Source of the DNA: Candidatus Omnitrophota bacterium
Lineage (GTDB): Bacteria > Omnitrophota > Gorgyraeia > JABMRJ01
Assembly: GCA_013202745.1 (NCBI GenBank)
Contig: JABMRJ010000118.1
Span: 1 to 36,067, forward strand
DNA: 36,067 nucleotides
Direction of reading: 5' to 3'
The notes beneath the pieces were generated by a model. That model did no database searches. It was not told the DNA's origin and was given only the letters and a program-made list of their open reading frames with translations. Made by a program: the position numbers and the translations under genes. Shown here in pieces: positions 1 through 19,179 of the stretch. Numbering within the stretch: position 1 is the stretch's first letter; each line of letters opens with the position of its first letter.

Positions 1-5
1 CTATT

Positions 6-3000
6 ATGCCGATGCCCAAGAAGAGACCCGAAGCCGCAGATCCTTTCCTTTTACTCCAATTGAGAAGGCCGGGAGAGAAATTATCGGACGAGGATAAGTT
101 GAGGAGATTTTCAGTCGAGGATATCAATAGGCAATTTCGTAAACTCCTCAAGATCTGCCATCCAGATGTGAATCCTCCGGAATTGAGGGATAAAGCAAAT
201 AAAGTTATCAAGGCTCTTGTTATCGCAAGAGAAAAGGCGATTAGGCAGCTGGTAAGGTTAGGAACGATCTTGCCAGAGGAGTATGCTGAGAGGGTAAGGA
301 TAGAAAGGAAGATGGAGGAAGAAGAGGCTAAAAGGCACCTTAGAAGAAAAAAGAGATTTTTACCCGCCCCGTCCTCAACAGAGCAAGAAGACAGCTTTAT
401 TATAAAGGGTGAAGAGGCGAAGGAGGAACTTGCCAGGGTCATTGCTGAAGGAGAGTTTAAGGAGTATGAGATCCGCGATGATCTATTGCGTTATATAGAA
501 AATTTATTTGTTAGGTTTGATAAGACCTATGGAGGGCAGCCCGGTATGGAGAAGATATTCGCATCGGTAACTCAAGCCATTGAGGATTTAACGGCAAAGA
601 GAATAATAGCATTTAAATCCATAGTCTTAGGTTCGAGGGATATCGAAGGCCAGACAGACCAGTTTGCGCTCGGATTTGGCAGCGAGGATATGCTCGGTTA
701 CGCAGATGACCTGCTAAGAAATTTGAGCTTAACCAGCGACCATCTACCTTGTGAATATCTTCTCCACGAAGCCCTCTGTGCGCGTTTCGGCCATGAGAAG
801 GCGCGCGAGGTTCAGAGATTAATCTTTCCCATGAATTACCCTGATGATAAGAAATACCCCGAAGGCATGTTGAGAGAGTTCATAAGAGAGTTCATCAACA
901 AGCGTGCGCAGGCCCTTAAGTCTCCTGTGCCCTCAGCAGGATCTGCAAAAGGATCCGATGAATATATCGAACCATATGCGCCCAATGAGAATATGGAGAC
1001 GATCATAGATGGTATGAGATCCGGGAGTCTAAGCTTTAATATCCCCGCGTTTGTAAAAGGCGACGGTACGATGGCTATATACGGTTATTACCCGGAAGGC
1101 GCTACTTCTGGCAGGCGTATACCTATAAAACTGGGTGTCTTTCCGGATAGATCGCTCATGAGAGGTGGCAGGGGTGTTGTAATAAGCGGCAGATTATTTA
1201 AAGATGGCTGCAGGGGTATTACGATATGGGCAGTTGACGATAAAAACGAAAAGGCGTTTCCCATAGTAAGCTATAAGCTTTATAAGGAAGGGCTATTTTT
1301 CGGAAAACCCGAAAGAATCTTTTTGGATCTGGAAGGCCTTGATGAAGAAGAGATTCCTTCGACAAAAGACTTGGCTGTTGCAGGATTTCTCTACTGGGCC
1401 GCAAAAGGCGAGAATGCGCCTGAGGTTTTGAATTTCAAGCCACCGGGAGAGAGTTCGTCAAGGGTATATCTATACAACACCCCAAAAGGAGCTGTAAGGC
1501 ATACCTTCGATATGTCAAAGGTGCTCTTGAAGAATGGCATAAGAGGCATATCCGAGGTATACGGGGAAGATGGGCGTGGAATATGCTATTGGATCCTTGA
1601 TGAAGAGGGGGTTCCGATCATCCCTGTAGCCGGTTATAAGATCTATGAAGGCAGCCGTTTTGTCACAGACCCCGTACTTTATGGGTTTGGATTGGCGGAT
1701 TACGAAAAGGGCGATTATCCAACATCGCGGGCTACGAACTATGACGAGGCGCTGGCTGTAATGAAGTTAATCTATTGGCTTGCGACAGGAAGCGGTACTG
1801 AGCCGGGAGATCTTGTCCGTGTCTCATCAGGCCAGTCGAGACGGTGCGCATCACTCTATAGCCATGGAGGCAAGATAGATCACTATATACCGAGCATTAA
1901 GGACAAATATATATTTAGACAGAGGGTAGTCCTTAAAGACGGCTCCAGAGGTATTATCTACAGAAGTTTAGACGCTCAAGGCAGTCCATCATCCCCATTA
2001 AGAGGTTTTATCCTCTTTAGAAATGGAAAGTTCTTGAAGAAGGCCGAGATCGAGAAGATCCCTGACGATCAGCTCCAGAAGGTGTTGGATAAGTCTGATG
2101 GGGTCCGCGCAAGCGCTCCTGTAGCTCGAAAAGGAAGAGCAGTCAATGTTCTTATCCCGGAAGTATTAAATACTATAAGGGAAGTATTTGTAAGGGCGAT
2201 AGAGAGGACGGCTCAGGCACCTACCTTAGCTGAATTCGTAGATGCAGTAAGAGCCAAACACAAGATCTCTGCGAGTGTTTCCGCTATGCGTGATGGCATA
2301 AAGAAGGTTACTGGGGAGATAGCCGATGACTTACAGATAGAATTGAAGACCTTATCTGCATACTTAGACAAAAGGGGAAAAAGAGGGATACTCATCGTTC
2401 CGTACCATCTTGAGATTATCAAAGAAGCATTCTGTAGTGTCTACAGGGAGAGGGGGGAGTTGCTAAGCCCCGCCCAGCTGTCGGCACACCTATTGAGAGA
2501 GCATGGCGAAGAACTTCTTTTAGACGAGGAGGCGGTAAGAAGGGCTATGATAAAGCTTATACCTGCATTATCCGGTGAATTAAGTATAATCGAAGCCTAT
2601 ATAGCAAGGGCTATAAAAGGGGAAAGACCAGCACCGAGTGATAGATTACCAGATAGAACAGCTACCGTGGATGGTCAGGAAGAATTGAAAGAGGGCAGCC
2701 TTAAAACTGAAGAGATAGAAGATATCGTTAAGAATGCTTGGAGGAGTATAAGCAGCGCAGATTTTATAAAACCCGAGCAAGTAGCCTATATGACACCCGC
2801 TAATTTATGTGTAATCTTCACAGAGGAGGGTTATTATGATGATAAGTTTGCCAGAATGTGGTTCGATGGCGTAATCAGGCTCCTTAATCAAAGCAGCGCA
2901 GGGGATGCAGAGAGATTTGCGGAGATAATCTTTGCCTTATGGCAGGGGAAGGTGCCAGAGTTGCGGTTTGCGAGTCAGAGCCGGCACATCGTCAGAAACC

Positions 3001-6000
3001 TGGAGAGCCTTGTAGCACTTGCATCTAAGAAGTGCCTACTTAATAGACCAACCCTTACCCTGTTAAGAGGGGTTACGGAGACCATCAACAAGTCTGCGTC
3101 AGAAGGATCCCCGAATAACAAAGCCCCTTCTGGAGACGGGTATATAATAAAAGGAGAAGAGGCCAGGAGGAGGTTAGATGAGGTTATAGAGGCAGAGGAT
3201 TTTGTGCCTCTGGATATACCGGAAGGCGCGCTTGAGTACCTGTATAGTTTTCCGGAAGCTCTCGCGGACAGGCTGCAGAAAGATGATCTTACAAAGACGA
3301 TCGCAGATGATATAATCCTGGCATTAGAAGATATAAAAAAGAAGAGAAAAGTCGGATTCGAATCTATAGTCTTGAGCTCACAAGGGGTCCCAGGACAAAA
3401 GGAAGACCAATTCGCGCTCGGTTTCTGGAATAAGGAGAAAGATATCCTCGGCTATGCAACGGATCTTTTGGAATATTTAGGCCAGATAGACGGTAGATTC
3501 AAAACAAACCTGGTTGCAGAATATATCCTCCACGAAGCCCTCTGCGCCCGTTTCGGCCACCAGCCCGCCCGCGATATCCAGCGTGCAATATTCTCTGAGA
3601 ATTATCCTGATGATGATATCTATTCCGAAGGCTTATTAAGAGAAGTCTTGAGATATTTTGTAAATAGCCGTGCCTCAATACCAAGCTGGACAGAGATTCT
3701 TAATGCACCTTCAGATGGCGAGATATTAAACCTTACTGAAGGATTAACCGATGAAAGATACCTTTCATATTTTGAAAGATACAGCGAACCCCGCTATGAA
3801 AGTGATACCGAAGTTAGGAATGAGAATATTTCAACAGTTATGGATAGTTTAACGCATAGAAGTGTAGCGCTTGTTCTCGGCTACGGCTCCATAAACCAGA
3901 GCATTCTTCAAGATTTTGATCAAGTTATTTTAGTGGACATGAACAAAGACGCATTAAGGCACGCATGGAATAACTTGTCGCAGGAATTGAGGAAAAAGAC
4001 ATACCTGGTGAGGACAGATGCCTCCTGGCTTGCTGCAGATATTATTAGAGTGATAGAAAGAATTGAAGGAAAAGATATAAGCTTTAAAGATGCTGTGAGG
4101 ATTATAGCGGGCGCCATCGATATGTGCAGAAACAGAGTATTTCCGTATGATTTCGCGGATCTAGTTATCTCCGAAAGGACATACTATGACCTGGAGAAAT
4201 CACTTTTAGAATATATTATGAGAAAACTAGAAGAGATGTATCCTGGTAACATGTCAGAAGGCAAGATGAAGAAAAAAGTAAGAGATATATTTATAGTAGC
4301 GTTAAAACATCTCCAGGTCGAACAATGGCATAAGATTTTATCGGAAGGCGGCTCAGCTTATTTAAGCGTCTTGGATAAGCTAAAGATGCCGATGAAGATA
4401 GAATACATAGATATTATAGAAAGATGGGATCCGCTCTTTAGCGCAGTCGAAGAATTTAATCTTATCGATAGATCCGTAGATTTACCAATCAAATTCTGGT
4501 CATGGAGAGAAGCTCCAAAACATGCCCCTGTGTGGCGCGTAAGAGGCTTCTGGTTCTCTAAAGGCGCCTCACAGGCCGAACCGGCACAGACCGGCGAAGG
4601 CGGGATGGCGGTAAGAAAGGATATAAATAGATGGATAGAAGACGCAGATAAAGGCGATGGGGAAGCCCTTGGAAGGCTCATAGGGCATATTGAAAGATCG
4701 GTCTGGGTAAATCCGGAGGATAGGATAAAAGAGGTAGAAATTATAGGCGTAAGACTGCAAGGTTCTGCGCAAGAGAGGTTCCTCAAAGGGGTCAGAAGGT
4801 GGTTCGAAGAAGATATTATTGAAATATTAAAATGCGACGAATCGAGGCTTGATGAACTCAATAGAAGATTCCGGGAATTATTCAATATGCATATTATACC
4901 GTGTTTTTCCGAAGCGATGGTCGAAAGTTATTTATCCTATCCGTACCATGCAAAGAGATTAAAGGTTGCCCTGAATGGAAGGGATGCGGCATATTCATTC
5001 TTCACAGGGGCCTGCAAAAAAATGGGCTGGTCGATTAGAGAGATATATGATACTGTTTTTGAATTGTGCTATAACGTCCGAAAACACGGCGGAGGCGGTA
5101 TAGTCCTTTTAAGAAATATCTATTCCGGCACAGAGAATATAGGTATTGAAATAGTAGCCAGAGATAAAGGGCCTGGCATAGGAGATGCCGAAGAGGCGAG
5201 AAAGAGGGCCTTTCTGCCGAAACCTGGCGGAATAGGATTTATAACTATAATAGGCGACCCTTCCAAAGCGCCGTCCGTCTTTGCCAAAGAAGGTGAGATA
5301 GTCTATGAAACGAGCGACGGATCAACGGGCCGTCTCTTCAGATATGATCCTGATGAAAAGAGATTTGTTGAGACAGAACAAGTGCGCAGAATCGAGCAAG
5401 GCACACGCGCCAGATTGACCTTGATGAGAAAAGATTTACCAGAGCCCGAACCTGCGCCAGAGTTGGATGTTGGTAAGGTAGAAACGCCTGAAGGGGTCCT
5501 GCCGGAATTTATGGCGGGGAGAAAGTACTGCATGAGGATAAATAGAGACCAGGCAACAGCAGGCCGGTATGAGACTGCTCTTATGTGGTGGTCCAGATTG
5601 TCAAGGGCCTTCCCGCAGGCAGAATTTGACCTTCAGGTAATAGAAAATGCAAATAAGGAAAACGGATTTGTGGAGATAACATGCACAAAAAATGTGAGGG
5701 ATGAAGCGACAGGCGTTTCTTATGAAGAGACGCATTCCGGCGCTGTAAAGGTTACAAATCCAGATCGCCTCGATGAAACGCGTACACTCCTAAAGATTCT
5801 CAATATGGCGTTTATAGCGAGTAATGTGCCGGATGTAGATAGCAGAGAATATACGGCAGATGTAGAAGTTTTCTTAAGATTTATTAATAGTATCTACAGG
5901 TCGATAAAGGGAGAGGAATTATTTAGAGATGATACGATCTCTTCATCGCCTCAGGAAGTGATAGATTTAATAAGGCATATAGAGATGGAACTTCCGGATG

Positions 6001-6068
6001 CAGAGCCTGTTGATTATGATAAACAGCTTGAACTCAATAATGCCATAGAAACGTTGAAAGCGGTATAA
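6..6068 (+). CDS. Giant multidomain protein (~2020 aa): N-terminal DnaJ-like J-domain, tandem unknown repeats, duplicated HEALCARFGH domain, Rossmann/methyltransferase-like segment, RsbW-like HATPase; 5' end may extend beyond the window
   Basis: Continuous 2020-codon ORF. J-domain signature FRKLLKICHPDVNP (HPD at nt 159-167). Two copies of IIKGEEA...DQFALGF...LHEALCARFGH. VLGYGS...VILVDMNKDAL. HATPase N-box ELCYNVRKHG and G1 box DKGPGIG. First ATG is only 6 nt into the window with no upstream stop visible. Confidence 0.9.
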   Translation: MPMPKKRPEAADPFLLLQLRRPGEKLSDEDKLRRFSVEDINRQFRKLLKICHPDVNPPELRDKANKVIKALVIAREKAIRQLVRLGTILPEEYAERVRIERKMEEEEAKRHLRRKKRFLPAPSSTEQEDSFIIKGEEAKEELARVIAEGEFKEYEIRDDLLRYIENLFVRFDKTYGGQPGMEKIFASVTQAIEDLTAKRIIAFKSIVLGSRDIEGQTDQFALGFGSEDMLGYADDLLRNLSLTSDHLPCEYLLHEALCARFGHEKAREVQRLIFPMNYPDDKKYPEGMLREFIREFINKRAQALKSPVPSAGSAKGSDEYIEPYAPNENMETIIDGMRSGSLSFNIPAFVKGDGTMAIYGYYPEGATSGRRIPIKLGVFPDRSLMRGGRGVVISGRLFKDGCRGITIWAVDDKNEKAFPIVSYKLYKEGLFFGKPERIFLDLEGLDEEEIPSTKDLAVAGFLYWAAKGENAPEVLNFKPPGESSSRVYLYNTPKGAVRHTFDMSKVLLKNGIRGISEVYGEDGRGICYWILDEEGVPIIPVAGYKIYEGSRFVTDPVLYGFGLADYEKGDYPTSRATNYDEALAVMKLIYWLATGSGTEPGDLVRVSSGQSRRCASLYSHGGKIDHYIPSIKDKYIFRQRVVLKDGSRGIIYRSLDAQGSPSSPLRGFILFRNGKFLKKAEIEKIPDDQLQKVLDKSDGVRASAPVARKGRAVNVLIPEVLNTIREVFVRAIERTAQAPTLAEFVDAVRAKHKISASVSAMRDGIKKVTGEIADDLQIELKTLSAYLDKRGKRGILIVPYHLEIIKEAFCSVYRERGELLSPAQLSAHLLREHGEELLLDEEAVRRAMIKLIPALSGELSIIEAYIARAIKGERPAPSDRLPDRTATVDGQEELKEGSLKTEEIEDIVKNAWRSISSADFIKPEQVAYMTPANLCVIFTEEGYYDDKFARMWFDGVIRLLNQSSAGDAERFAEIIFALWQGKVPELRFASQSRHIVRNLESLVALASKKCLLNRPTLTLLRGVTETINKSASEGSPNNKAPSGDGYIIKGEEARRRLDEVIEAEDFVPLDIPEGALEYLYSFPEALADRLQKDDLTKTIADDIILALEDIKKKRKVGFESIVLSSQGVPGQKEDQFALGFWNKEKDILGYATDLLEYLGQIDGRFKTNLVAEYILHEALCARFGHQPARDIQRAIFSENYPDDDIYSEGLLREVLRYFVNSRASIPSWTEILNAPSDGEILNLTEGLTDERYLSYFERYSEPRYESDTEVRNENISTVMDSLTHRSVALVLGYGSINQSILQDFDQVILVDMNKDALRHAWNNLSQELRKKTYLVRTDASWLAADIIRVIERIEGKDISFKDAVRIIAGAIDMCRNRVFPYDFADLVISERTYYDLEKSLLEYIMRKLEEMYPGNMSEGKMKKKVRDIFIVALKHLQVEQWHKILSEGGSAYLSVLDKLKMPMKIEYIDIIERWDPLFSAVEEFNLIDRSVDLPIKFWSWREAPKHAPVWRVRGFWFSKGASQAEPAQTGEGGMAVRKDINRWIEDADKGDGEALGRLIGHIERSVWVNPEDRIKEVEIIGVRLQGSAQERFLKGVRRWFEEDIIEILKCDESRLDELNRRFRELFNMHIIPCFSEAMVESYLSYPYHAKRLKVALNGRDAAYSFFTGACKKMGWSIREIYDTVFELCYNVRKHGGGGIVLLRNIYSGTENIGIEIVARDKGPGIGDAEEARKRAFLPKPGGIGFITIIGDPSKAPSVFAKEGEIVYETSDGSTGRLFRYDPDEKRFVETEQVRRIEQGTRARLTLMRKDLPEPEPAPELDVGKVETPEGVLPEFMAGRKYCMRINRDQATAGRYETALMWWSRLSRAFPQAEFDLQVIENANKENGFVEITCTKNVRDEATGVSYEETHSGAVKVTNPDRLDETRTLLKILNMAFIASNVPDVDSREYTADVEVFLRFINSIYRSIKGEELFRDDTISSSPQEVIDLIRHIEMELPDAEPVDYDKQLELNNAIETLKAV

Positions 6069-7070
6069 TCAAAAGAGCTTGCCTACGCTTAAAATTATCG
6101 ATTTCTCTTCATTGTCTGCAAGCAGTTTCAGCAGCGCTTCACCAGTACCTTTAAGGAACCTCTTCTTGAACCTTATCTCGATACCGAGAGGCTTGCCGTT
6201 CTTATCCCGCAGAATAAGTTGAAGATCATTATCCTTGCTCAGTTTAACCTCAGCGCCGAATGAGATGAAGTTTTTCCTTCCGTCTGAATACCTGATCTCG
6301 AAGAGAAGTCCCGTTCTACGCGTAAGTTGCCATTTACCAAATAGGGTGATGGTCTTTATCCGAGAACGTTCTCCGCCCAATTTTGTCCCGAATGTATAAA
6401 CAAGGGCATTCTTCTTGCCGAAGAGTCCAGCCCTCGCGAGTCTTGCCTGAAAAATAAAACCGGAACGCCCTTTAAGATCTAAAGCATAATTTAGCCTGTT
6501 TTTATCTATTATCTTCCAGCATCCTTTGAAGATGAGCCTGCTATTACGATTCGCGCCTTTTTTAGTATATGAGTATTCGACTTCATTATCCTTGTTTATC
6601 TCCCAGTTGCCTGTAAATGTGAGCGTATCGTCTTTACCGCCTCTTCTCTCTACCTTAAACAATATCCTCTGTCTCTTATCGAGTGCCCATCTTCCGTTAA
6701 GATTTAATGTGCGGGTCAGCATAGTACCGTCACTATTCCTTGTGCTTACGCCAAAACCAATGGTATTCTTCTTTACGAATAATATGTCGCCCTTGATAAG
6801 AAAGACCTCTTTTGAGCGCTGCTTATAAGAATGACGCAGAGTAATCTTAAGGTCATGGTCTTTGGTTAAAGAGTACTTGCCATTGAGGCTTATCCTGTGA
6901 GGCAGATCGTTTGCTTTGCCTGAATTAGGGGGAGTCTTTATAAGGTATTGGAGGGTGTTATCATTAGCCGTCTTGAACCTACCATCGAGGCTGAGCCTGT
7001 GTTTAGGCACGCCCGATCTACCGCCTTTATGGATTACAAGCCTATTATAAGGGTCTATCTCATATTTCAT
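6069..7070 (-). CDS. Hypothetical beta-repeat protein (333 aa), no signal peptide apparent
   Basis: 333-aa ORF with periodic units such as LNLNGRWALDKRQRILFKV, LTFTGNWEINKDNEVEYSY, LIFKGCWKIIDKNRLNYAL, ITLFGKWQLTRRTGLLFEI. The repeat periodicity in this frame supports real coding. Confidence 0.8.
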   Translation of the reverse strand: MKYEIDPYNRLVIHKGGRSGVPKHRLSLDGRFKTANDNTLQYLIKTPPNSGKANDLPHRISLNGKYSLTKDHDLKITLRHSYKQRSKEVFLIKGDILFVKKNTIGFGVSTRNSDGTMLTRTLNLNGRWALDKRQRILFKVERRGGKDDTLTFTGNWEINKDNEVEYSYTKKGANRNSRLIFKGCWKIIDKNRLNYALDLKGRSGFIFQARLARAGLFGKKNALVYTFGTKLGGERSRIKTITLFGKWQLTRRTGLLFEIRYSDGRKNFISFGAEVKLSKDNDLQLILRDKNGKPLGIEIRFKKRFLKGTGEALLKLLADNEEKSIILSVGKLF

Positions 7071-7764: not shown

Positions 7765-9450
7765 ATGTTTAGAAAAAAGAGAGAGATAGTAGACCTCCTT
7801 GTTGAGAAGAAGATGGTGACGACAGAGCAGATAGCTGCTGCCAATAAGGAGATCAAAAAGACCGGCCTTACTCTCGACAAGGCCCTCATAAAGCTCGGGT
7901 TTATCACCGAAGAGGATGTGGCATACACCATGGCCGAGGATCTCGGCGTGCCGTTTATGGATATAAGGGAGTATATATTGGATCCAAAGGTCATGGGGGT
8001 TATTACGGAGAATATGGCGAGGGAATATAAAGCCGTGCCGGTATTCAGGGTCAAGGATACATTGACTGTTGCCATGGTCAACCCGAAAGATATAGTCGCT
8101 ATAGATGAGATAAGAAATAAGACGAAGTGCAGTAATATCGAGGCGGTACTGGGGTCTAAAGAAGCCATCATGAAGACGGTCGATCAATACTACAGCGGGG
8201 TCGCCAAGTTCGACGATGTCTTGAAGGGCATAGCCAAGGGCGAAGCCGCTGCGCTTAAGGATGATGTGGGCGTCAAGGAATTGACTCAGATGGCAGAAGA
8301 GGCGCCTATAGTCAAGCTCGTAAATCTTCTCATCCTGGAAGCCGTTAAAGTAAGAGCGAGCGATATCCACATTGAGCCGGATGAGACTCTTACAAGGGTA
8401 AGGTACAGGATAGACGGAGTCTTGCGCGAGATAAATACCACTCCAAAACATCTACAGCAGGCGATAGCATCGAGGGTAAAGCTCTTATCAAGGATGGATA
8501 TCTCTGAAAAGAGGAAGCCCCAGGACGGTAAGATAGAGATGAAGCTGGAAGATAAGAGCCTCGACATGAGGGTATCGACATGCCCTACAGTGCACGGGGA
8601 GAATATAGTAATAAGGATATTGGATAAATCGAGTGTAATGCTGGGATTGGGCGATATAGGTTTTAGTGAGGATGATCTGAAGAAATATGATGAGCTCATA
8701 CATAGGCCGCACGGGATAGTACTCGTGACAGGACCAACGGGCAGCGGAAAGACATCGACCCTCTATGCTTCAATCGCCACTATAAATTCCATTGAAAAGA
8801 ATATAGTTACCATTGAAGACCCCGTAGAATACCAGATCCCCCTTATAAGGCAGACACAGGTCAATCCAAAGATAGGTTTTACATTTGCAGAGGGCTTGCG
8901 CACATTCTTGAGGCAGGACCCCGATATAATTATGGTCGGTGAAATAAGGGACAGGGAGACCGGGGAGATAGCTGTCCAGGCATCGCTCACGGGCCACCTC
9001 GTCTTTTCTACGCTCCATACAAACGACTCATCCACGGCAGTTACGAGGCTTATGGAGATGGGAATCGAACCCTTCCTGATATCGAGCACACTTTCAGGGG
9101 TATTGGCCCAAAGGCTGGTAAGGGTTATCTGCAAGAGGTGTAAAGAAAGCTACACCCCTCCGGCCGATGTCTTGAAGCGCCTTGGTTTCAAGGAGAAGAT
9201 CAATTTTTACAAGGGGAAAGGCTGCACAAAATGCAACTATTCAGGGTTTGCGGGGAGACTGGGTGTCTTTGAATTATTGATTCTGGATGACAAGATGAAA
9301 GAGCTTATTGTAAAAAAGGTATCCGGTGATGAAATAAAGAAACTCGCTATAGAGAGGGGCTTGAGGACACTCTTCCAGGATGGTATGGAGAAGATAAAGA
9401 AGGGCATTACAACACCCGAAGAGATATTGAGGGTATTGGAGATGGGGTAG
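7765..9450 (+). CDS. gspE: Type II secretion / type IV pilus assembly ATPase (GspE/PilB)
   Basis: Walker A GPTGSGKTSTLY, Asp box, Walker B PDIIMVGEIRDRETGEIA, HTNDSSTAVTRLMEMG, and zinc motif CKRC...CTKC; T2SSE N-domain upstream. Confidence 0.97.
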   Translation: MFRKKREIVDLLVEKKMVTTEQIAAANKEIKKTGLTLDKALIKLGFITEEDVAYTMAEDLGVPFMDIREYILDPKVMGVITENMAREYKAVPVFRVKDTLTVAMVNPKDIVAIDEIRNKTKCSNIEAVLGSKEAIMKTVDQYYSGVAKFDDVLKGIAKGEAAALKDDVGVKELTQMAEEAPIVKLVNLLILEAVKVRASDIHIEPDETLTRVRYRIDGVLREINTTPKHLQQAIASRVKLLSRMDISEKRKPQDGKIEMKLEDKSLDMRVSTCPTVHGENIVIRILDKSSVMLGLGDIGFSEDDLKKYDELIHRPHGIVLVTGPTGSGKTSTLYASIATINSIEKNIVTIEDPVEYQIPLIRQTQVNPKIGFTFAEGLRTFLRQDPDIIMVGEIRDRETGEIAVQASLTGHLVFSTLHTNDSSTAVTRLMEMGIEPFLISSTLSGVLAQRLVRVICKRCKESYTPPADVLKRLGFKEKINFYKGKGCTKCNYSGFAGRLGVFELLILDDKMKELIVKKVSGDEIKKLAIERGLRTLFQDGMEKIKKGITTPEEILRVLEMG

Positions 9451-9456
9451 CGCATT

Positions 9457-10668
9457 ATGCCGGTATTCAGGTATAAGGTACGTGACAAATTCGGCAAGCA
9501 GTCCACGGGGTTGATGGGCGGAGATAGTAGGGATGCCATTGCCAGCCATTTCGAGGCGATGGGGTATACGCCTATAACCATAGAGGTCGAAGAAGATGTA
9601 AAGGAATCCGCTCTTCTTGGTAAGCGGAAGAAGATAAAACGCGAAGATATGAATATCTTCAACCGCCAGCTTGTGACCATGATAAAGGCAGGGTTGCCCC
9701 TGCTTGCCTCTCTCAACTCCCTGGAAAAACAGACCAGTAGCCCGACCTTAAGAAACATCATCAAAGATATCATAAAAGATATAGAAGGCGGGAGCAGCTT
9801 TTCACAAGCGCTCAAAAAACATCCCACAGTATTCAATGACCTGTATGTCAATACCATAAAGGGTGGCGAGATGGGGGGTGCCCTCGACATCGTCCTTGAG
9901 AGACTGGCAGACTTAAGCGAGCACGAAGCGGACAATATACAGAAGATAAAATCGGCCACAAGGTATCCTATCATAACCATAAGTGTCCTTGTGATAGGTT
10001 TCTCAGTCCTTGTAACATTCGTCGTCCCAAAATTTACTTCTATATTTGATCAATTTGAAGGGCAGCTGCCTTTACCCACAAGGATACTGATAGGTATAAA
10101 TTACCTTATCACTAACTACTGGTATGCAATAATTGGCGTAGGTGCCATAAGCTTTTTTGCGGGAAAAAAATATATAAATACGAAACAGGGAAGGCGCGTA
10201 TGGGATAGGATTAAGCTTAAAATGCCTGTATTCGGCACGCTTATATTTATGCTGACCATGTCCCGTTTTACGCGCATTACGGCCATAATGATAAGGAGCG
10301 GTGTGCCTATACTTGCGATACTGGATATGGTGTCAGGCACTACGGGAAATGTCCTTATTTCAGAAGCCATAAGGGATGTCTTAAAGAGCGTTAATGAAGG
10401 AAAAAGTATGGCTGAGCCCATGGCGAAAAGCAAAGTCTTCTCTCCTATGGTGGTCCAGATGGTTGCCATAGGAGAAGAGACAGGGCAATTAGATGACCTC
10501 CTCTTCCGTGTTTCTGAATATTATGATAGTCAGGCAGATTATATCATAAAGAACCTGACTACTATGATAGAGCCTATACTTATCGTTACCCTTGGGTGTG
10601 TGGTCCTATTGCTGGCCCTTGCCATATTCCTGCCTATGTGGAATATGATAAGCTTAATAAAGAAGTAA
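9457..10668 (+). CDS. gspF: Type II secretion / type IV pilus inner-membrane platform protein (GspF/PilC)
   Basis: FNRQLVTMIKAGLPLLASLNSLEKQ and IGEETGQLDDLLFRVSEYYD are GspF/PilC family motifs; multiple TM segments; follows gspE. Confidence 0.96.
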   Translation: MPVFRYKVRDKFGKQSTGLMGGDSRDAIASHFEAMGYTPITIEVEEDVKESALLGKRKKIKREDMNIFNRQLVTMIKAGLPLLASLNSLEKQTSSPTLRNIIKDIIKDIEGGSSFSQALKKHPTVFNDLYVNTIKGGEMGGALDIVLERLADLSEHEADNIQKIKSATRYPIITISVLVIGFSVLVTFVVPKFTSIFDQFEGQLPLPTRILIGINYLITNYWYAIIGVGAISFFAGKKYINTKQGRRVWDRIKLKMPVFGTLIFMLTMSRFTRITAIMIRSGVPILAILDMVSGTTGNVLISEAIRDVLKSVNEGKSMAEPMAKSKVFSPMVVQMVAIGEETGQLDDLLFRVSEYYDSQADYIIKNLTTMIEPILIVTLGCVVLLLALAIFLPMWNMISLIKK

Positions 10669-10697
10669 ATAAAGTAGCGATTTTTAGATTGGTTGCA

Positions 10698-10726
10698 TTG
10701 ACGTTGTGATTTTTATATGATATACT
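10698..10726 (+). promoter_or_regulatory. Candidate sigma70-type promoter (extended -10) for the pilin gene
   Basis: TTGACG (10698-10703), 17-bp spacer, TATACT (10721-10726), preceded by TGa (extended -10). Confidence 0.7.
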
Positions 10727-10784
10727 TTAAGACAGAGGTGAAAAAGATACCTTTTAATGAAGGTAGGGAGGAGGTGGATATAAA

Positions 10785-11111
10785 ATGTTCTTAAGAGATA
10801 ACAAGGGTTTTACACTGATAGAGCTGATCATGGTCATAGTGATACTCGGAATATTGGCTATAGTAGCCATTCCTAAGTATGGTGACCTGAAAGCCGATGC
10901 CGAAGCTGGGGTAGCCGTAGGCGTAAAGACCGCTATTGAGTCTGGCGCAAGGATATGGAATGCCAGATATATGATGGGGTCAACGGATGCTACCACTGCA
11001 TATCCAGCAGCATGGACAGACTGTCTGGAAGAGACCGCAGATGTAGATGCAAAGTATAACATAACCTACACATCTGCAGACGGTAAGGTTACCGGCATAG
11101 TACAGAAATAA
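10785..11111 (+). CDS. gspG: Major pilin/pseudopilin (GspG/PilA-like)
   Basis: Prepilin signal NKG|FTLIELIMVIVILGILAIVAIPKY; strong SD GGGAGGAGG upstream. Confidence 0.93.
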   Translation: MFLRDNKGFTLIELIMVIVILGILAIVAIPKYGDLKADAEAGVAVGVKTAIESGARIWNARYMMGSTDATTAYPAAWTDCLEETADVDAKYNITYTSADGKVTGIVQK

Positions 11112-11143
11112 TCATAAGGGCATGATACTTATGTAATTTAGCC

Positions 11144-11176
11144 AAAAAGGGAAGGACTAAATGTCCTTCCCTTTTT
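11144..11176 (+). terminator. Intrinsic terminator downstream of the pilin gene
   Basis: Perfect 14-bp inverted repeat AAAAAGGGAAGGAC-taaat-GTCCTTCCCTTTTT ending in a T-run. Confidence 0.85.
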
Positions 11177-11190
11177 ATAGAGATTCTAAG

Positions 11191-13605
11191 ATGCAAATGA
11201 AAGAACCTATACTAAAACGAAAAGAATCCTTACTTATCTTACTGTTTTTCGCATTAATTTTATTCTGGTTCCATGACGTTATATTCTACGAAAACATCTT
11301 TTCTGATTCAGACCTCGGAAGATACTTCTATCCCCTCAGGCATTTTGCAGTAAATTCTATGAAAGGCGGTGACGTGCCCCTCTGGAACCCCTACATTCAT
11401 GTCGGTAAGCCTTTACTGGCAACTCTCCAGACGTGTGTATTCTATCCTGTAAGCATTATCTATTATATCATCCCTGCGTTTGATGATGCATTCGACTGGT
11501 ATATAATATTCCATTTTATCTTGGCCGGCATATTCATGTATATACTCATGCGTTATTGGAAGCACTCAAGGACGGCCGCTTCTGTATCATCTGTTGTTTT
11601 TGTATTCGGGGGCTACCTTTCGTCGGTCATAAGTTTGAATACATCATTGAGCTCTGTTGTGTGGCTGCCCATTATAGTGCTCTTTTTTGACAAGGCCCTA
11701 AGGACAAAACGCCCCTTCTATGCAGTAGTTGCAAGTATATTCATGGCCATACAGTTCCTTGGCGGCGAGCCGACCATGATATACTGCACGACATGGCTTA
11801 TATTCTTCTATTTATTGGGTTTTATCTATACATCACGCAGTAGGGAATGCGGGCCAAAAGGTGTGCTGATGCTTTTCGGTCTCTTTGTAATAACTGCAGG
11901 GCTCTGGGTATTAATCTCTGCCATACAGCTTCTTCCATTCATTGAACTTCTCTCAAAGTCGACAAGGGCAGGCGTAAATGATTTTAATACTATAACGACA
12001 TGGTCATTATCACCTCCGGAACTATTAGCGTTTTTTATACCATATGTACTTGGAAATATCAGTATACCTGCGGCATATCTCGACACCCAACAGTGGATGA
12101 CCAATTTTTATTTAGGTATAATACCGTTTTTCTTTATACTCTTCGCCTTTATTTCACGCCCATCAAAGAAGGCCAAATTTTTCGGCATACTTACAGTACT
12201 ATTCCTCATCCTGGCCCTGGGCAGGTACACCCCTATGTACAAGATACTCCATGATTATATATTCGGATTCGGCCATATACGTTATCCTATAAGGTTTATC
12301 TTTGTAGCGATATTCAGTATTTCCATCCTTGCGGGCATGGGATATGATGCATTTGTAAAGATATGGGACGATGAAAGAAAAAAGACCATTACGAAATGGA
12401 TAGTCGTATTAAACGGCCTCCTTGGAATTTTACTCATCTCTTTCCTTAAATTCCAGGAGCCGATCTATCGCTTTATAGTAAGCTCAAGGATATTGATAGA
12501 TAAGATAACTTTAATTAATCTTGAGAAGCTATTTAATGTCTTCCTATTTGACAGCGCGCATATCTGTCGTTTCTTCATCGCCTTTACCCTCGCAGCAATG
12601 GTCATCATACTCTATTTAAACCGTAAGATCGGCAAGGGCATCTTCGGGTTCCTTATAGTAGCCCTTGTCTTTATAGACCTGTATAGCGTAAATACCCGCA
12701 TAGCGGATATAGTAAACAATGAGATCTTCAAGCATGAGCCGCCCGGCTACAGCCTGCTAAAAAGAGATAAATCCCTCTTTCGCATAACGCGCACAGGACC
12801 AATACAGACATTAAACAAGTCTGTCTGGGGTGACAATTATGATTTAGCACAGTATTACAGAAAGGCCACATTCTATACTAATGCGCCTATGATATACGGC
12901 ATATATGATGCAGATGGCTACGGTTCTCTATTCAGAAAAGACAGGATCGATTTTATGGAGCTTATATTTAATGCAGAGTATCCCACAAGATCCAAGCTTA
13001 TAAATCTTCTTAATATTAAATATATGATCAGCGCTGAGCCACTCAGGGCGGGCCATTATGAGATGATATTCAAGGACAAGGTAGACAGGATACCTGTATT
13101 TAAGGACGGCAAGGTGTACACATACTACTATATAAGCAAGAATAATGCATGCATGGATAGGGCATTTTTGGTAAGAGAGGCAAGGGTTGCCGGGGATAGG
13201 GAAGAGGCCCTGGAGATCTTGGGAGAAGAAGGTTTTGACCCTGCAGAATTGGTTGTACTCGAGGAAGAGCCCAAAAGTTTCGATAAAAAGAGCGGTTTGA
13301 ATATAAAAGAATCTGTCAAGATAGTAAGTTATAAGCCTAAAGAGGTCATTATAGAGGCCTCTTGCAAAGAGCCTAAATTTCTTATATTGAGCGACTCTTA
13401 TTACCCCGGATGGAAGGTATTTGTCGACGGAAAAGATGATAAACTATATAGGGCGTATTATTTCTTAAGGGCCGTGCATCTTGACAGCGGCAAGCACGTT
13501 GTTAAGTTTGTTTTTGATCCGCTCTCTTATAAGATAGGCAAGATTATATCATTAATTACCATAACCTTTTTGGCTCTCTTCCTATTACGATTTGCTTTAT
13601 TATGA
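11191..13605 (+). CDS. YfhO-like polytopic membrane protein (GT-C-type glycosyltransferase family)
   Basis: ~800 aa, many TM helices, N-terminal DVIFYENIFSDSDLGRYFYPLRHFAVNSMKGGDVPLWNPYIHVGKPLLA and C-terminal ILSDSYYPGWKVFVDGK...YYFLRAV are YfhO-type features. The ORF-track start (11161) lies in the terminator loop, so the start is moved to ATG 11191 (or 11197). Confidence 0.85.
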   Translation: MQMKEPILKRKESLLILLFFALILFWFHDVIFYENIFSDSDLGRYFYPLRHFAVNSMKGGDVPLWNPYIHVGKPLLATLQTCVFYPVSIIYYIIPAFDDAFDWYIIFHFILAGIFMYILMRYWKHSRTAASVSSVVFVFGGYLSSVISLNTSLSSVVWLPIIVLFFDKALRTKRPFYAVVASIFMAIQFLGGEPTMIYCTTWLIFFYLLGFIYTSRSRECGPKGVLMLFGLFVITAGLWVLISAIQLLPFIELLSKSTRAGVNDFNTITTWSLSPPELLAFFIPYVLGNISIPAAYLDTQQWMTNFYLGIIPFFFILFAFISRPSKKAKFFGILTVLFLILALGRYTPMYKILHDYIFGFGHIRYPIRFIFVAIFSISILAGMGYDAFVKIWDDERKKTITKWIVVLNGLLGILLISFLKFQEPIYRFIVSSRILIDKITLINLEKLFNVFLFDSAHICRFFIAFTLAAMVIILYLNRKIGKGIFGFLIVALVFIDLYSVNTRIADIVNNEIFKHEPPGYSLLKRDKSLFRITRTGPIQTLNKSVWGDNYDLAQYYRKATFYTNAPMIYGIYDADGYGSLFRKDRIDFMELIFNAEYPTRSKLINLLNIKYMISAEPLRAGHYEMIFKDKVDRIPVFKDGKVYTYYYISKNNACMDRAFLVREARVAGDREEALEILGEEGFDPAELVVLEEEPKSFDKKSGLNIKESVKIVSYKPKEVIIEASCKEPKFLILSDSYYPGWKVFVDGKDDKLYRAYYFLRAVHLDSGKHVVKFVFDPLSYKIGKIISLITITFLALFLLRFALL

Positions 13606-13619
13606 TTAGATGGTATACT
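13592..13619 (+). promoter_or_regulatory. Candidate promoter for the minor pseudopilin operon
   Basis: TTGCTT (13592-13597), 16-bp spacer, TGgTATACT extended -10 (13611-13619), located at the 3' end and just after the YfhO ORF. Confidence 0.45.
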
Positions 13620-13639
13620 ATTATAATATTGCGGTATAT

Positions 13640-14158
13640 ATGAAAAAAGGCTTTACTTTAATAGAACTTATAATTGTTGTAATAATAATAGCCATAGTGG
13701 CAATCACTGCCTTGCCGCGGCTTGCACAGATTGGTGAAATCAGGATGCATATGGCGTCCCGCAAGATGGCTGCGGATATGAAGTGGGCCCACGAATACGC
13801 CATAGCACGCAATCGCAACACGAGCATGGTCTTTAACCCTGCGCCTACTAATACTTATGTGATACAAGAAAATTCATCAGGCAGTTGGCAGACTCTTATA
13901 GATCCGACAACAGGGGATCCATTTAGCATTAATCTTAATACAGGGGAATATAAGGGTGTGAGCATTAAGAGCGCAGACTTTGGCGGAGGCAGAATACTTG
14001 TATTCGACGCCATGGGGAGGCCTTATACAGATAGTGCTCTTACCACAGAACTTACAAATATCGGTACTGTGATACTGGAGGTAGCAGGTGCTAGTAACGT
14101 GACTGAAACTACAATAGCTGTTAGCCCGGAGACAGGGGTAGTATCATTTAATGAATAG
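13640..14158 (+). CDS. gspH: Minor pseudopilin (GspH-like)
   Basis: MKKG|FTLIELIIVVIIIAIVAITALPRL prepilin signal. Start moved from 13610 to 13640 because the upstream ATG overlaps the candidate -10 and precedes the signal by an unneeded 10 aa. Confidence 0.85.
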   Translation: MKKGFTLIELIIVVIIIAIVAITALPRLAQIGEIRMHMASRKMAADMKWAHEYAIARNRNTSMVFNPAPTNTYVIQENSSGSWQTLIDPTTGDPFSINLNTGEYKGVSIKSADFGGGRILVFDAMGRPYTDSALTTELTNIGTVILEVAGASNVTETTIAVSPETGVVSFNE

Positions 14159-14726
14159 AAGAGATAAGGCATTTACATTGGTGGAGCTTATCGTAGTCCT
14201 GGTGGTAATGACAGTAGGGCTCGTTACCCTTATAATGTTACTAAAGAATGCAAGCGTCAATAATGCTGCAGCGCACTTTGTAACCACAGCTAATGAATTG
14301 GCCAAGGGCAAGATGGAGGAGCTTATAGGCATCGCTAAAAAGGATGGATTTGTAAGTATACCTACGGGAACGTATTCAGATGAAACTCCGGTCGCAGGTT
14401 TTGATAAATACAATAGATTGACGACGGTCTACTATGTTGCACCGCCGGACTTTCAGCAGGTAGGTTATCAGACAGATTACAAAAAAGTAAAAGTGACTGT
14501 AACGAGCGCAGCCGGCCTATCAACTGAAGTGGTACTGGATCCGATATTCAGCGATCACAAAAAGAAATCACCAGCAGGAAAACCACTTAGCCCAGGTATT
14601 CTAACGCCTGGAGAGATGGAGCCGTTACCAGAACCTGAACCAGAGTTTGAGCCACAGCCGGGATATGAGCCAATGCCGGAATCTGAATATGAAGTAGTTC
14701 CATATGAAGAAGAGCATTATGAATAG
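14151..14726 (+). CDS. Minor pseudopilin (GspI-like) with acidic Pro-rich tail
   Basis: MNRRDKA|FTLVELIVVLVVMTVGLVTLIMLLKNA; C-terminal PLPEPEPEFEPQPGYEPMPESEYEVVPYEEEHYE. Confidence 0.85.
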   Translation: MNRRDKAFTLVELIVVLVVMTVGLVTLIMLLKNASVNNAAAHFVTTANELAKGKMEELIGIAKKDGFVSIPTGTYSDETPVAGFDKYNRLTTVYYVAPPDFQQVGYQTDYKKVKVTVTSAAGLSTEVVLDPIFSDHKKKSPAGKPLSPGILTPGEMEPLPEPEPEFEPQPGYEPMPESEYEVVPYEEEHYE

Positions 14727-15198
14727 ACATACTAAGGGGTTTACTCTTGTAGAGATGGTAGTCACTATAGTAGTCCTTTCCGTGATGTTATTTAGCGTCA
14801 TGATGATCCTTACGGAGGGTCTTAAGATTTGGTGGGTCAATAGAAATTATGTTGAATTAAGAGCTAATGGCCGCTATGCCCTCTGGAAGATGGGCTTGGA
14901 GTTCCGCGAGGCAGAGTTTGTATTTTCTCAATCAGGAAATCAATCTGCCATAAGTTTTCTGTCGGATATAGATAGAGATGGAAACAGGGAGAAGATAGAT
15001 TATTGGCTGTCCGGCAATATGCTGGCAAGGAGCGAAGATGGGGGTACTCCATGGCCTTTAGCATATGATATGAATACAATCACTTTTAACTGGGATGCGC
15101 CGCTTCTTACAGTTGCAATGGAGCTTGTAAGGGGCGCCGAAACCGTTAACTTGCAGACGAGCGTAACAGCGAAATGTATCCCGCAGAGTCAGCTTTAG
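14719..15198 (+). CDS. Minor pseudopilin (GspJ-like)
   Basis: MNRHTKG|FTLVEMVVTIVVLSVMLFSVMMIL prepilin signal; ATG at 14719 preferred, preceded by GAAGAAGAG. Confidence 0.82.
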   Translation: MNRHTKGFTLVEMVVTIVVLSVMLFSVMMILTEGLKIWWVNRNYVELRANGRYALWKMGLEFREAEFVFSQSGNQSAISFLSDIDRDGNREKIDYWLSGNMLARSEDGGTPWPLAYDMNTITFNWDAPLLTVAMELVRGAETVNLQTSVTAKCIPQSQL

Positions 15199-16964
15199 TG
15201 AAAGATAGAAGGGGCGTATCTATAATATTTGCTGTTTTTGTACTGCTTGTATTGAGCGTACTGGCGCTTGCGATATTTTCTATGATATCCAGTGATATAA
15301 GCAGTGCTGTGATGGGCGTAAATAGTTCCAGGGCGCTATATGTGGCTGATGCAGGCATAGAGATAGGCGCGCAGGCTATCAATTATGATGTGGCGGCAAC
15401 GGACGGCAATAATACGACTACGCCGTCAAACAATGGTTATTGCGGTGTATTTTACATAGAAGGGTATAATTATGGCAGTACGGGTATGTGTGTCGCTCCT
15501 GAAAACGCATGTCTCCACGGCGTTGATTGGAATAATGCCAATACTACACAGACAGCTCTCATCGGCCCCACTGCCGGTTCAAGCCTCGTTTTATGGGATT
15601 TTAAACAGAGACGCAATCTTATCGGAGGCAGAATAGTAAATCTGGAGATGCGTATAAGGGCAAGGAGGGTAAATATCCCAGGAATTCCCGGTCCGCCGAT
15701 AACACCTATAGTTGCACTACAGTATACGCTTGACGGAGAAGCTAACTGGAACGAGATAGCACAGCTTAACATAGACAATAATGGCTGGAGCCCGGCTGCT
15801 TATAGGGTATTTGGATTCCCGATGGTCTTAGCGGTAGATTGGAACTTATTGATGAATAGCAGCGGGAGCAATTTCAGGATAAGGGCTATGGTGATGAATA
15901 ACGGCAATATGAATTGTGAAGTCGATTGGCTTTCCTTGAGGGCTACCGTTGAAGTCGATAGCTATTTAGAGCCATGGTCAACATCCGGTAAAGGTTATTA
16001 TCTTCCCAAGGGCATCAATTTTCCGGTCTCTCTGGGCGGTGCCACGCTCGATTATATAACGGTAGTCGATGAAGCAGGTAAGATAAATCTCAATTACAGC
16101 ATCACAGACACTACCGTAATGCCCAAGATCATACCCGTCCTTAAGTATCTGATGGAGACGGTAGGTGTCAGTGATCCAACTGGTCTGGCGCAGACCATTA
16201 CAGCCCGCGTAGGGAGCGGCCAGCTTTTTAGTTCAATAGAGGAGCTTAAAGATCCGGGCGGCATAAAGATGGAGGCGGATGATTTTAATAAGATAAAGCC
16301 GTATATTACCGTCTATTCATGGGTCAATAATAGCGGGACGAGGCCAGGGATTGTCATTGAGCCCAAGGCGCGTGCGCCGATAAATATAAACACCGCCAAC
16401 ACTGTCGTTTTATCGGCTGTTTTTAAGTGCAGTACTGATGATGCGTTTTTGATAGAGTGGCTTGTAACTGATATAATGTCTCGACGGGAATCTCAGCCTT
16501 TTACACATATGTTTTCGAGTTATGCAACACAGGCCGCTACGCGCGACCTGACCTCTTTTGCAGGCTATATACAGCTATTGATAGATGGAGGCGGCGGGAG
16601 AATGTTTACTGTTAGCCAGATCTCTGCGTTGGAGCAGATAAGGGGAAACGCCGACGCCACCTATTATAATAAAACGGTATTGCCGGCAAACCCTCCTCCT
16701 CCGGTTGGATATAATGATTGGACAGAGGTAAGTACCCCAGTCGTAGAATTCTGTTATTCATCCAATGCATTTGCCATAAGGGCTGAGGCAAAGAGTAAGG
16801 ATGTTTCACGTTTAGTAAGGTCGATTTACGGCGACAGGTATGATTATCCTACATATGGCTATAATTCTGTAGGGACATTTTATATGCCGACAGATATGAA
16901 TGATAGCGACCCTGAGCAATACTGGAGAGAGGAGCGCGGTTCAGATATATATGCTGCCTATTAA
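15198..16964 (+). CDS. gspK: GspK-like minor pseudopilin / tip protein
   Basis: KDRRG|VSIIFAVFVLLVLSVLALAIFSM N-terminus, GspK-type helix-hairpin-helix region (INLNYSITD..., PININTANTVVLSAVF). GTG start at 15198 (TAGTG overlap) fits the signal better than ATG 15174. Confidence 0.85.
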   Translation: MKDRRGVSIIFAVFVLLVLSVLALAIFSMISSDISSAVMGVNSSRALYVADAGIEIGAQAINYDVAATDGNNTTTPSNNGYCGVFYIEGYNYGSTGMCVAPENACLHGVDWNNANTTQTALIGPTAGSSLVLWDFKQRRNLIGGRIVNLEMRIRARRVNIPGIPGPPITPIVALQYTLDGEANWNEIAQLNIDNNGWSPAAYRVFGFPMVLAVDWNLLMNSSGSNFRIRAMVMNNGNMNCEVDWLSLRATVEVDSYLEPWSTSGKGYYLPKGINFPVSLGGATLDYITVVDEAGKINLNYSITDTTVMPKIIPVLKYLMETVGVSDPTGLAQTITARVGSGQLFSSIEELKDPGGIKMEADDFNKIKPYITVYSWVNNSGTRPGIVIEPKARAPININTANTVVLSAVFKCSTDDAFLIEWLVTDIMSRRESQPFTHMFSSYATQAATRDLTSFAGYIQLLIDGGGGRMFTVSQISALEQIRGNADATYYNKTVLPANPPPPVGYNDWTEVSTPVVEFCYSSNAFAIRAEAKSKDVSRLVRSIYGDRYDYPTYGYNSVGTFYMPTDMNDSDPEQYWREERGSDIYAAY

Positions 16965-18576: not shown

Positions 18577-18579
18577 GTT

Positions 18580-19179
18580 ATGAAAAATAAATTAAACCTA
18601 AAATTGAAGATAAACATAGAGCTTAATAAGACGCAGAAACTCATATTCCTGATGGCGTTTATAATCTTTATAGTCATCTTTATATTGTGGCTCTTCGTGT
18701 ATTCGCCTACCAGGGCTAAGGCGAATGTCTTAAAAGAGGAGCTGGATGCCATCCGGTTAGATATAAGGGATATCACGAGGATAGCCGGGGGCCAGAAGAA
18801 CATGGATGTGGCCTACAAGAAATTCCATGAAAAGCTTAAGGAGCTGAATAGGATAATACCGACAGAGGAGAAGTCTGCATTAAGCCTCCTCTCAAAGATT
18901 GCAGATGAGATGGGCATAAAGATATTGATCATGAATCCCGGAGGCGCAGTAGAGAGCCAGATCGATTTAGAGATAAAAGGCAAACTGATAGCCGAGATGC
19001 CCATATTGCTGGAGTTAAGGTGCGATTATAAGACTCTCGGTGAATACCTTAATAGGATAAGGACCGAATTGCCCGTGCTTGTCGTGGTCAATGAAGTCAA
19101 GATGAGCCGTTTAGCAGAAGGCGGGAATACTTACTTGAAGGCAAACTTAAACCTTAGATTGTTCATGCTCAAAGGCTGA
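18580..19179 (+). CDS. PilO/GspM-like pilus assembly protein
   Basis: Single N-terminal TM, coiled coil, and LLSKIADEMGIKI...LGEYLNRIRTELPVLVVVNEVKMS typical of PilO; directly follows PilM-N. Confidence 0.8.
   Translation: MKNKLNLKLKINIELNKTQKLIFLMAFIIFIVIFILWLFVYSPTRAKANVLKEELDAIRLDIRDITRIAGGQKNMDVAYKKFHEKLKELNRIIPTEEKSALSLLSKIADEMGIKILIMNPGGAVESQIDLEIKGKLIAEMPILLELRCDYKTLGEYLNRIRTELPVLVVVNEVKMSRLAEGGNTYLKANLNLRLFMLKG

What the first reader, a model, noticed from the sequence alone, without database searches (positions are those of the whole stretch)
6..6068. Giant protein combining a J-domain with an RsbW-like HATPase and a methyltransferase-like segment
The ORF starts with a J-domain (HPD motif in KICHPDVNP) and ends with a GHKL-type ATPase (ELCYNVRKHG ... 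DKGPGIG ... KPGGIGFITI ... GTRARLTL) resembling anti-sigma serine kinase folds more than sensor kinases. A Rossmann-like VLGYGS/VILVDMNKDAL segment (~3855-4200) lies between. I know of no described family joining chaperone recruitment, a possible SAM-dependent enzyme and an RsbW-like ATPase in one chain. A role as a signalling or stress scaffold is inference.
Basis: partly seen in the sequence, partly recalled or inferred. Interest (0 to 1): 0.72.

Follow-up and report, generated by a model that had tools for sequence, protein, structure and literature searches.

The report
Tail end of a giant mosaic protein
This is the last 2,020 residues of a much larger patchwork protein from an uncultured Omnitrophota bacterium; it carries a chaperone-type J-domain, a module of unproven function and an anti-sigma-type ATPase, and ends in a previously unnamed domain found only at the very end of such proteins, most of which start with an export signal.

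Summary
The ORF is real, but it is not a whole gene. Its frame runs off the contig start (window base 1 = contig base 1), so the J-domain is simply where the assembly begins. It is the C-terminal part of an Omnitrophota "giant ORF", a class already described (PMC10066038).

- J-domain: confirmed (HPD kept; whole module shared with a 10,855-aa open frame in the same genome).
- ATPase: confirmed; the family profile's best solved match is the anti-sigma factor SpoIIAB (6e-8), and ATP-site residues are invariant in 8 members.
- "Methyltransferase": Rossmann-like only; not proven.

Each module recurs alone in other giant frames (one of at least 57,756 aa), never in this order: a shuffled mosaic.

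New here: the last ~187 residues are a domain without Pfam or PDB match, found in 23 of 384 Omnitrophota genomes. In all 30 loci checked it ends 0-14 residues before the stop codon. Intact-5' ORFs carrying it start with a Sec-type signal peptide in 17 of 21 cases.

So this chain, with no membrane span between J, ATPase and tail, is most likely exported: cytosol-type ATP-dependent modules on a giant surface or prey-directed protein. The true N-terminus is unseen, so export is inference.

The parts
3..6068 (+). Open frame, 2,021 codons, open at its 5' end (contig edge): C-terminal part of a giant mosaic protein
6..341 (+). J-domain module; HPD at 159-167; best Pfam stretch 108-215
   Evidence: DnaJ 23.1 bits; module shared with C75 aa 3633-3731; profile to PDB J-domains 9e-9 (51)
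393..905 (+). Unnamed module, copy 1 ('IIKGEEA ... EYLLHEALCARFGH ... FPMNYP')
   Evidence: No Pfam hit; alignment A5, 19 sequences
1203..2042 (+). Repeat-rich region (three 'RGI.YW..D..G ... GY.LY..G.FL' units)
   Evidence: Relatives in C157/C47 of the same genome and in G209 and G367
2103..3185 (+). Middle region without detected relatives
3138..3671 (+). Unnamed module, copy 2; predicted compact fold, pLDDT about 90
3795..4574 (+).
   Evidence: Relatives in 12 of 384 genomes; G033 58%, G197 25% (41); weak Rossmann fold hits
4797..5441 (+). GHKL ATPase of SpoIIAB/RsbW type: E at 5061 and N at 5073 (N box), D at 5163 (G1 box), G at 5229 (G2 box)
5505..6065 (+). C-terminal tail domain (CT), ends at the stop codon
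   Evidence: 30 of 30 loci end 0-14 residues before the stop; alignment A6; model pLDDT 87, pTM 0.82; no Pfam or convincing fold match

Best explanation
The ORF is the C-terminal 2,020 residues of a giant mosaic protein of an uncultured Omnitrophota bacterium, built from modules that recombine among giant genes of this phylum. Shown: the 5' end is cut by the contig; the modules recur singly in other giant frames; the tail domain occurs only at C-termini; J-domain and ATPase keep their key residues. Inferred: like most ORFs that share its modules and tail, the full protein begins with a Sec signal peptide and is exported. With no membrane span between J-domain, ATPase and tail, all three would then lie outside the cell. 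Proposed mechanism: the tail is an address or anchoring domain that sorts or holds giant proteins at the cell surface; the J-domain (recruits and stimulates an Hsp70) and the SpoIIAB-like ATPase/kinase need ATP, so they would act only where ATP is available, most plausibly in a prey or host cell that has been opened or joined to the predator. The first part (mosaic giant) is about 95% likely, export of this chain about 60%, action in prey cytosol about 20%. The confidence given is for 'exported mosaic giant with a C-terminal address domain'.
For: Contig edge and open frame. Other giant frames in the same genome: 10,855, 4,358, 4,007, 3,997 and 3,934 aa. Module-by-module matches in different giant frames and different orders. 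CT at the exact C-terminus in 30/30 loci, 23/384 genomes; all 14 named loci are Ca. Omnitrophota. Signal-peptide-like starts in 30/43 intact-5' ORFs carrying any module versus 45/118 other ORFs, Fisher p = 6e-4; for CT-bearing ORFs 17/21 (84). Giant frames with both signal peptide and the ATPase: G249 (57,756 aa), G046 (10,288), G060 (4,640), G239 (4,375), G267 (2,974); with signal peptide and J-domain, HPD kept: G072/L193, 4,015 aa. No hydrophobic span in the window frame; no strong span (>= 2.0) before CT in nearly all signal-bearing CT ORFs. One giant of this genome joins by 141- and 135-bp contig overlaps: C157 (signal peptide) -> C47 -> C134 (CT end). Predation and open cytoplasmic contact described for a relative (PMC13153191); giant proteins proposed to act on prey (PMC10066038).
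Against: The window protein's own N-terminus is not assembled. One CT-bearing frame of this genome (C162, 4,007 aa) shows no signal peptide. My signal-peptide test is home-made and liberal (38% of control ORFs pass). In some giants (G060, G267) one strong hydrophobic span separates signal peptide and ATPase, which would put the ATPase in the cytosol. No Hsp70 or ATP is expected outside the cell. No expression or localisation data.
Confidence: 0.6

Rival explanations
1. Membrane-spanning giant: signal peptide and ectodomain outside, one or more membrane spans upstream of window base 1, and the J-domain, ATPase and tail inside the bacterium's own cytosol, as a giant receptor or scaffold that works with its own DnaK and STAS proteins.
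For: Many giant frames have hydrophobic spans (C75 21, G033 41, G249 about 100). In G060 and G267 one strong span lies between signal peptide and ATPase. STAS-domain proteins, the usual partners of SpoIIAB/RsbW, exist in all 8 genomes tested. ATP and Hsp70 are in the cytosol.
Against: CT-bearing ORFs are mostly signal peptide plus no further strong span; G046, G036 (ATPase) and L193 (J) have no span before the module; no STAS hit lies on the contigs of these giants.
Confidence: 0.22
2. Patchwork without enzymatic role: modules were captured by recombination and serve only as bulk or binding surface (coat or adhesin); ATPase and J activities are lost.
For: The J-domain alone is below Pfam's cut-off with an unusual helix I-II stretch; the Rossmann module has an incomplete SAM motif; a kinase in C162 has lost motifs; PMC10066038 proposes coat or adhesion roles.
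Against: N, G1 and G2 box residues invariant in 8 ATPase members, 24-45% identical to the window copy; HPD kept in all 5 giant J-domains read; kinase (C47) and glutamate dehydrogenase (C75) embedded in this genome's giants keep catalytic motifs.
Confidence: 0.13
3. Assembly chimera of separate genes.
For: Fragmented bin (195 contigs); read-level support not available here.
Against: 2,021 codons without a stop (10^-55 by chance); the modules elsewhere also sit in long ORFs; same base composition as another giant of the genome (GC3 0.45 in both); in-frame chimeras at each module border are implausible.
Confidence: 0.03

Closest known systems
Giant ORFs of Omnitrophota (e.g. the 39,678-aa protein of Ca. 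Velamenicoccus archaeovorus; PMC10066038)
   Same: Same phylum, very long open frames, few recognisable domains, signs of export; proposed roles at the cell surface and in predation
   Different: Reported domains are adhesion- or carbohydrate-type and transmembrane helices; no J-domain, SpoIIAB-type ATPase or conserved C-terminal domain was found in the passages read
SpoIIAB / RsbW anti-sigma factor kinases
   Same: Same ATP-binding fold by profile (6e-8), including N box ExxxNxxxHG, G1 DxGxGI and a similar ATP lid
   Different: SpoIIAB/RsbW are stand-alone ~150-aa cytosolic proteins that act with STAS partners (own knowledge); this is a module in a giant chain with its own N-terminal extension
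J-domain proteins (DnaJ/Hsp40)
   Same: Helix II, HPD loop and helix III
   Different: No zinc-finger or substrate-binding part recognised; embedded in a giant; apparently exported in L193
Proteins with a signal peptide plus C-terminal sorting domain (type IX secretion CTD; PEP-CTERM)
   Same: Layout: N-terminal signal peptide, conserved domain at the exact C-terminus
   Different: No Pfam sequence relation detected; no C-terminal membrane helix; sorting machinery not searched for

Membership tests
Omnitrophota giant ORF | Very long uninterrupted frame (> 20 kb in PMC10066038) | tested here: inconclusive
   Only 6.07 kb of this frame is assembled; it is open at the contig edge. Sister frame C75 in the same genome is 32.6 kb (15)
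Omnitrophota giant ORF | Omnitrophota genome | tested here: met
   All named relatives of the tail are Ca. Omnitrophota; same-phylum relatives share most modules
Omnitrophota giant ORF | Export or membrane features in the same chain | not testable with these tools
   N-terminus missing; no span in the visible part; present in relatives
DnaJ / J-domain | HPD motif between helices II and III | tested here: met
DnaJ / J-domain | Score over Pfam's gathering cut-off | tested here: not met
   23.1 against 27.8 bits; met by the paralogue in C75 (33)
DnaJ / J-domain | Stimulates an Hsp70 ATPase | not testable with these tools
   needs an assay
SpoIIAB/RsbW | GHKL fold with intact N, G1 and G2 boxes | tested here: met
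SpoIIAB/RsbW | NCBIfam anti-sigma F model match | tested here: inconclusive
   2 of 8 family members match TIGR01925 (best 2e-7); the window copy does not
SpoIIAB/RsbW | STAS partner and sigma factor target | tested here: inconclusive
   STAS proteins present in all 8 genomes searched, but such proteins are common and none is linked to this gene (98)
SAM-dependent methyltransferase | Significant profile or fold match | tested here: not met
   Pfam E 0.09 (11); no PDB methyltransferase hit; fold E >= 0.05, prob <= 0.84 (82)

The most novel reading that the evidence does not exclude
Omnitrophota export giant mosaic proteins marked by a phylum-specific C-terminal address domain and loaded with ATP-dependent, normally cytosolic modules (J-domain, SpoIIAB-type kinase, protein kinases, metabolic enzymes) that act in the cytosol of a prey or host cell: a single-chain 'takeover' cargo.
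Probability: 0.2. Interest if true: 0.92.

Novelty: new variant of a known kind. Interest (0 to 1): 0.62.

Why it matters
Omnitrophota giant proteins are among the largest predicted in prokaryotes and their function is open. The C-terminal domain described here, exclusive to the ends of such ORFs and paired with signal peptides, gives a handle for recognising the ends of these genes in fragmented assemblies and for asking where the proteins go. Chaperone-, anti-sigma- and kinase-type modules in proteins that look exported pose a direct, testable question: do these bacteria send ATP-dependent machinery into other cells?

Tried and rejected
Tail as a known family: no Pfam hit in 30 members except one chance-level match; fold searches gave weak, conflicting hits (viral thioredoxin-like proteins, complex I and mitoribosomal subunits, low TM-scores). 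Repeated 'HEALC...GH' module as a zinc protease: the position of the second zinc ligand of HExxH is C, E or other residues, and no PDB or Pfam relative was found. Joining C103 to another contig: no 150-bp or 25-bp match to its first bases elsewhere in the bin, so the upstream part is not binned. First named-genome scan with the ATPase region found nothing. A 30-member tail alignment was too diverse for the pattern search; a closer subset worked. GC and GC3 give no sign that the ORF is foreign. The V. archaeovorus paper (PMC9004380) and the West-Roberts giant-gene preprint are not held, so overlap with their domain tables could not be excluded. The adjacent convergent ORF (6069-7070) was checked for linkage to giants: only one other hit.

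Full report
WHAT IS THERE. The window is contig C103 (36,067 bp) of a 1.67-Mb, 195-contig genome bin. The frame 3..6068 on the + strand has 2,021 codons and is open at its 5' end; only five bases precede the first ATG. By base composition an open frame of this length has a chance of about 10^-55. No other contig of the bin contains the first 25 or 150 bases, so the upstream neighbour is not in the bin.

J-DOMAIN. Pfam DnaJ scores 23.1 bits, under its cut-off of 27.8. A second copy of the whole module lies in contig C75, where one open frame of 10,855 aa fills the contig; that copy passes the cut-off. The two share helix II, HPD, helix III and a downstream 'LPEEYAERVR'-like stretch. Their joint profile finds solved J-domains at 9e-9. 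Across 384 Omnitrophota genomes this profile also finds J-domains inside frames of 4,015 (G072), 5,915 (G381) and 32,526 aa (G380), all with HPD.

ATPASE. The window copy alone is weak (HATPase_c_2 E 0.05), but it belongs to a family of eight of which six hit HATPase_c_2 (best 1e-5) and five HATPase_c (best 2.6e-7). Its profile's best solved relative is SpoIIAB (6e-8), ahead of histidine kinases (best 0.0023). N box E and N, G1 D-x-G-x-G and a G2 glycine are invariant across the eight. The profile finds relatives in 44 of 384 genomes, many in very long frames (57,756; 33,383; 25,332; 20,993; 19,582 aa); the weakest of these may be ordinary GHKL ATPases.

'METHYLTRANSFERASE'. The 260-aa module at 3795-4574 has close relatives in a 9,541-aa frame (58%) and a 6,804-aa frame (25%) and matches in 12 of 384 genomes. 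It looks Rossmann-like (VLG.GS ... VDxN), but Pfam (E 0.09), PDB sequences and a partial model (reasonable confidence in the first half, poor after) do not decide between methyltransferase and dehydrogenase.

OTHER MODULES. A ~170-aa module occurs twice (393-905 and 3138-3671; 46% identical), has no Pfam or significant PDB relative, folds confidently in the model, and recurs in more than ten other genomes. A repeat-rich region (1203-2042) recurs in C157/C47 of the same genome and in G209 and G367. No other locus found has the same module order, so the chain is a mosaic, not an orthologous multidomain family.

THE TAIL DOMAIN. The last ~187 residues form a domain found in 23 of 384 Omnitrophota genomes, five times in this genome (C50, C103, C162, C166, C134). 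In all 30 loci where I read the ORF end, the match stops 0-14 residues before the stop codon, most with an ending like 'EYNRLxxxxLxxAA'. AlphaFold gives a confident alpha/beta fold (pLDDT 87, pTM 0.82) without a convincing match. A scan of 84,980 named species found it only in Ca. Omnitrophota (14 loci; pattern-limited sensitivity).

N-TERMINI. Among ORFs with an intact 5' end that carry any module of this chain, 30 of 43 begin with a Sec-type signal peptide by a home-made rule, against 45 of 118 other ORFs (p = 6e-4); among tail-bearing ORFs 17 of 21. Several rule failures still look like signal peptides by eye. Signal peptides are present on ATPase-bearing frames (G249, G046, G060, G239, G267) and on the J-bearing 4,015-aa frame L193. 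One giant of this genome can be pieced together from contig overlaps of 141 and 135 bp: C157 (signal peptide) to C47 to C134 (tail), about 10.7 thousand residues with one apparent one-base frameshift at a run of six G. Its modules include GHKL ATPase, radical SAM, Fe-ADH, PCC, Ser/Thr kinase and TPR.

MECHANISM. Steps shown: mosaic, shuffled modules; C-terminal-only tail; preserved ATP-site and HPD residues. Steps inferred: this chain has a signal peptide upstream; it is exported; the tail sorts or anchors it; the ATP-dependent modules act where ATP is present. The window frame has no hydrophobic span, so J-domain, ATPase and tail lie on the same side of the membrane; in most relatives the tail follows a signal peptide without a further strong span. 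In G060 and G267, however, one strong span precedes the ATPase, which would place it in the cytosol; the membrane-receptor reading is therefore kept as the main rival. Literature support for contact with prey cytoplasm exists for V. archaeovorus (PMC13153191).

VERDICT. Observation partly confirmed; interpretation partly supported. Giant Omnitrophota ORFs are known; the module content, the SpoIIAB-type ATPase and J-domain in them, and above all the C-terminal-only tail paired with signal peptides are not described in the passages I could read. The most relevant preprint was not available.

Noticed in passing
G249:C2:22777-196044 (L049-L058): One open frame of at least 57,756 aa, open at the contig end, with a signal-peptide-like start, about 80-100 hydrophobic spans, and both the ATPase and the unnamed module.
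   Followed up: partly
G000:C75 (L011, L012): Whole 32.6-kb contig is one frame; it embeds a complete-looking glutamate dehydrogenase, radical SAM, AAA and J-domains.
   Followed up: partly
G000:C47:11973-11992 (L013): Apparent one-base frameshift at GGGGGG inside a giant frame; assembly error or programmed frameshifting.
   Followed up: partly
L205:1181-14194 (G197:C33): 4,338-aa tail-bearing ORF with signal peptide that embeds a phosphomannose isomerase and matches ROK and uridine-kinase profiles.
   Followed up: partly
L065:2600-4114 (G036:C146): 505-aa ORF: signal-peptide-like start, a nucleotidyltransferase-like motif (GSxxxG...SDxDI) and the same ATPase, with no membrane span.
   Followed up: partly
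window 6069-7070, minus strand: Convergent 333-aa strand-repeat ORF ending in Phe, abutting the giant's stop codon; one relative (43%) on contig G239:C7, about 5 kb from an ATPase-bearing giant.
   Followed up: partly
window 7765-19179: Type IV pilus / type II secretion cluster (PilB/GspE, PilC/GspF, three pseudopilins, PilM-PilN fusion, PilO) next to the giant gene.
   Followed up: no
window 11161-13605: YfhO-type membrane protein between pilus genes.
   Followed up: no
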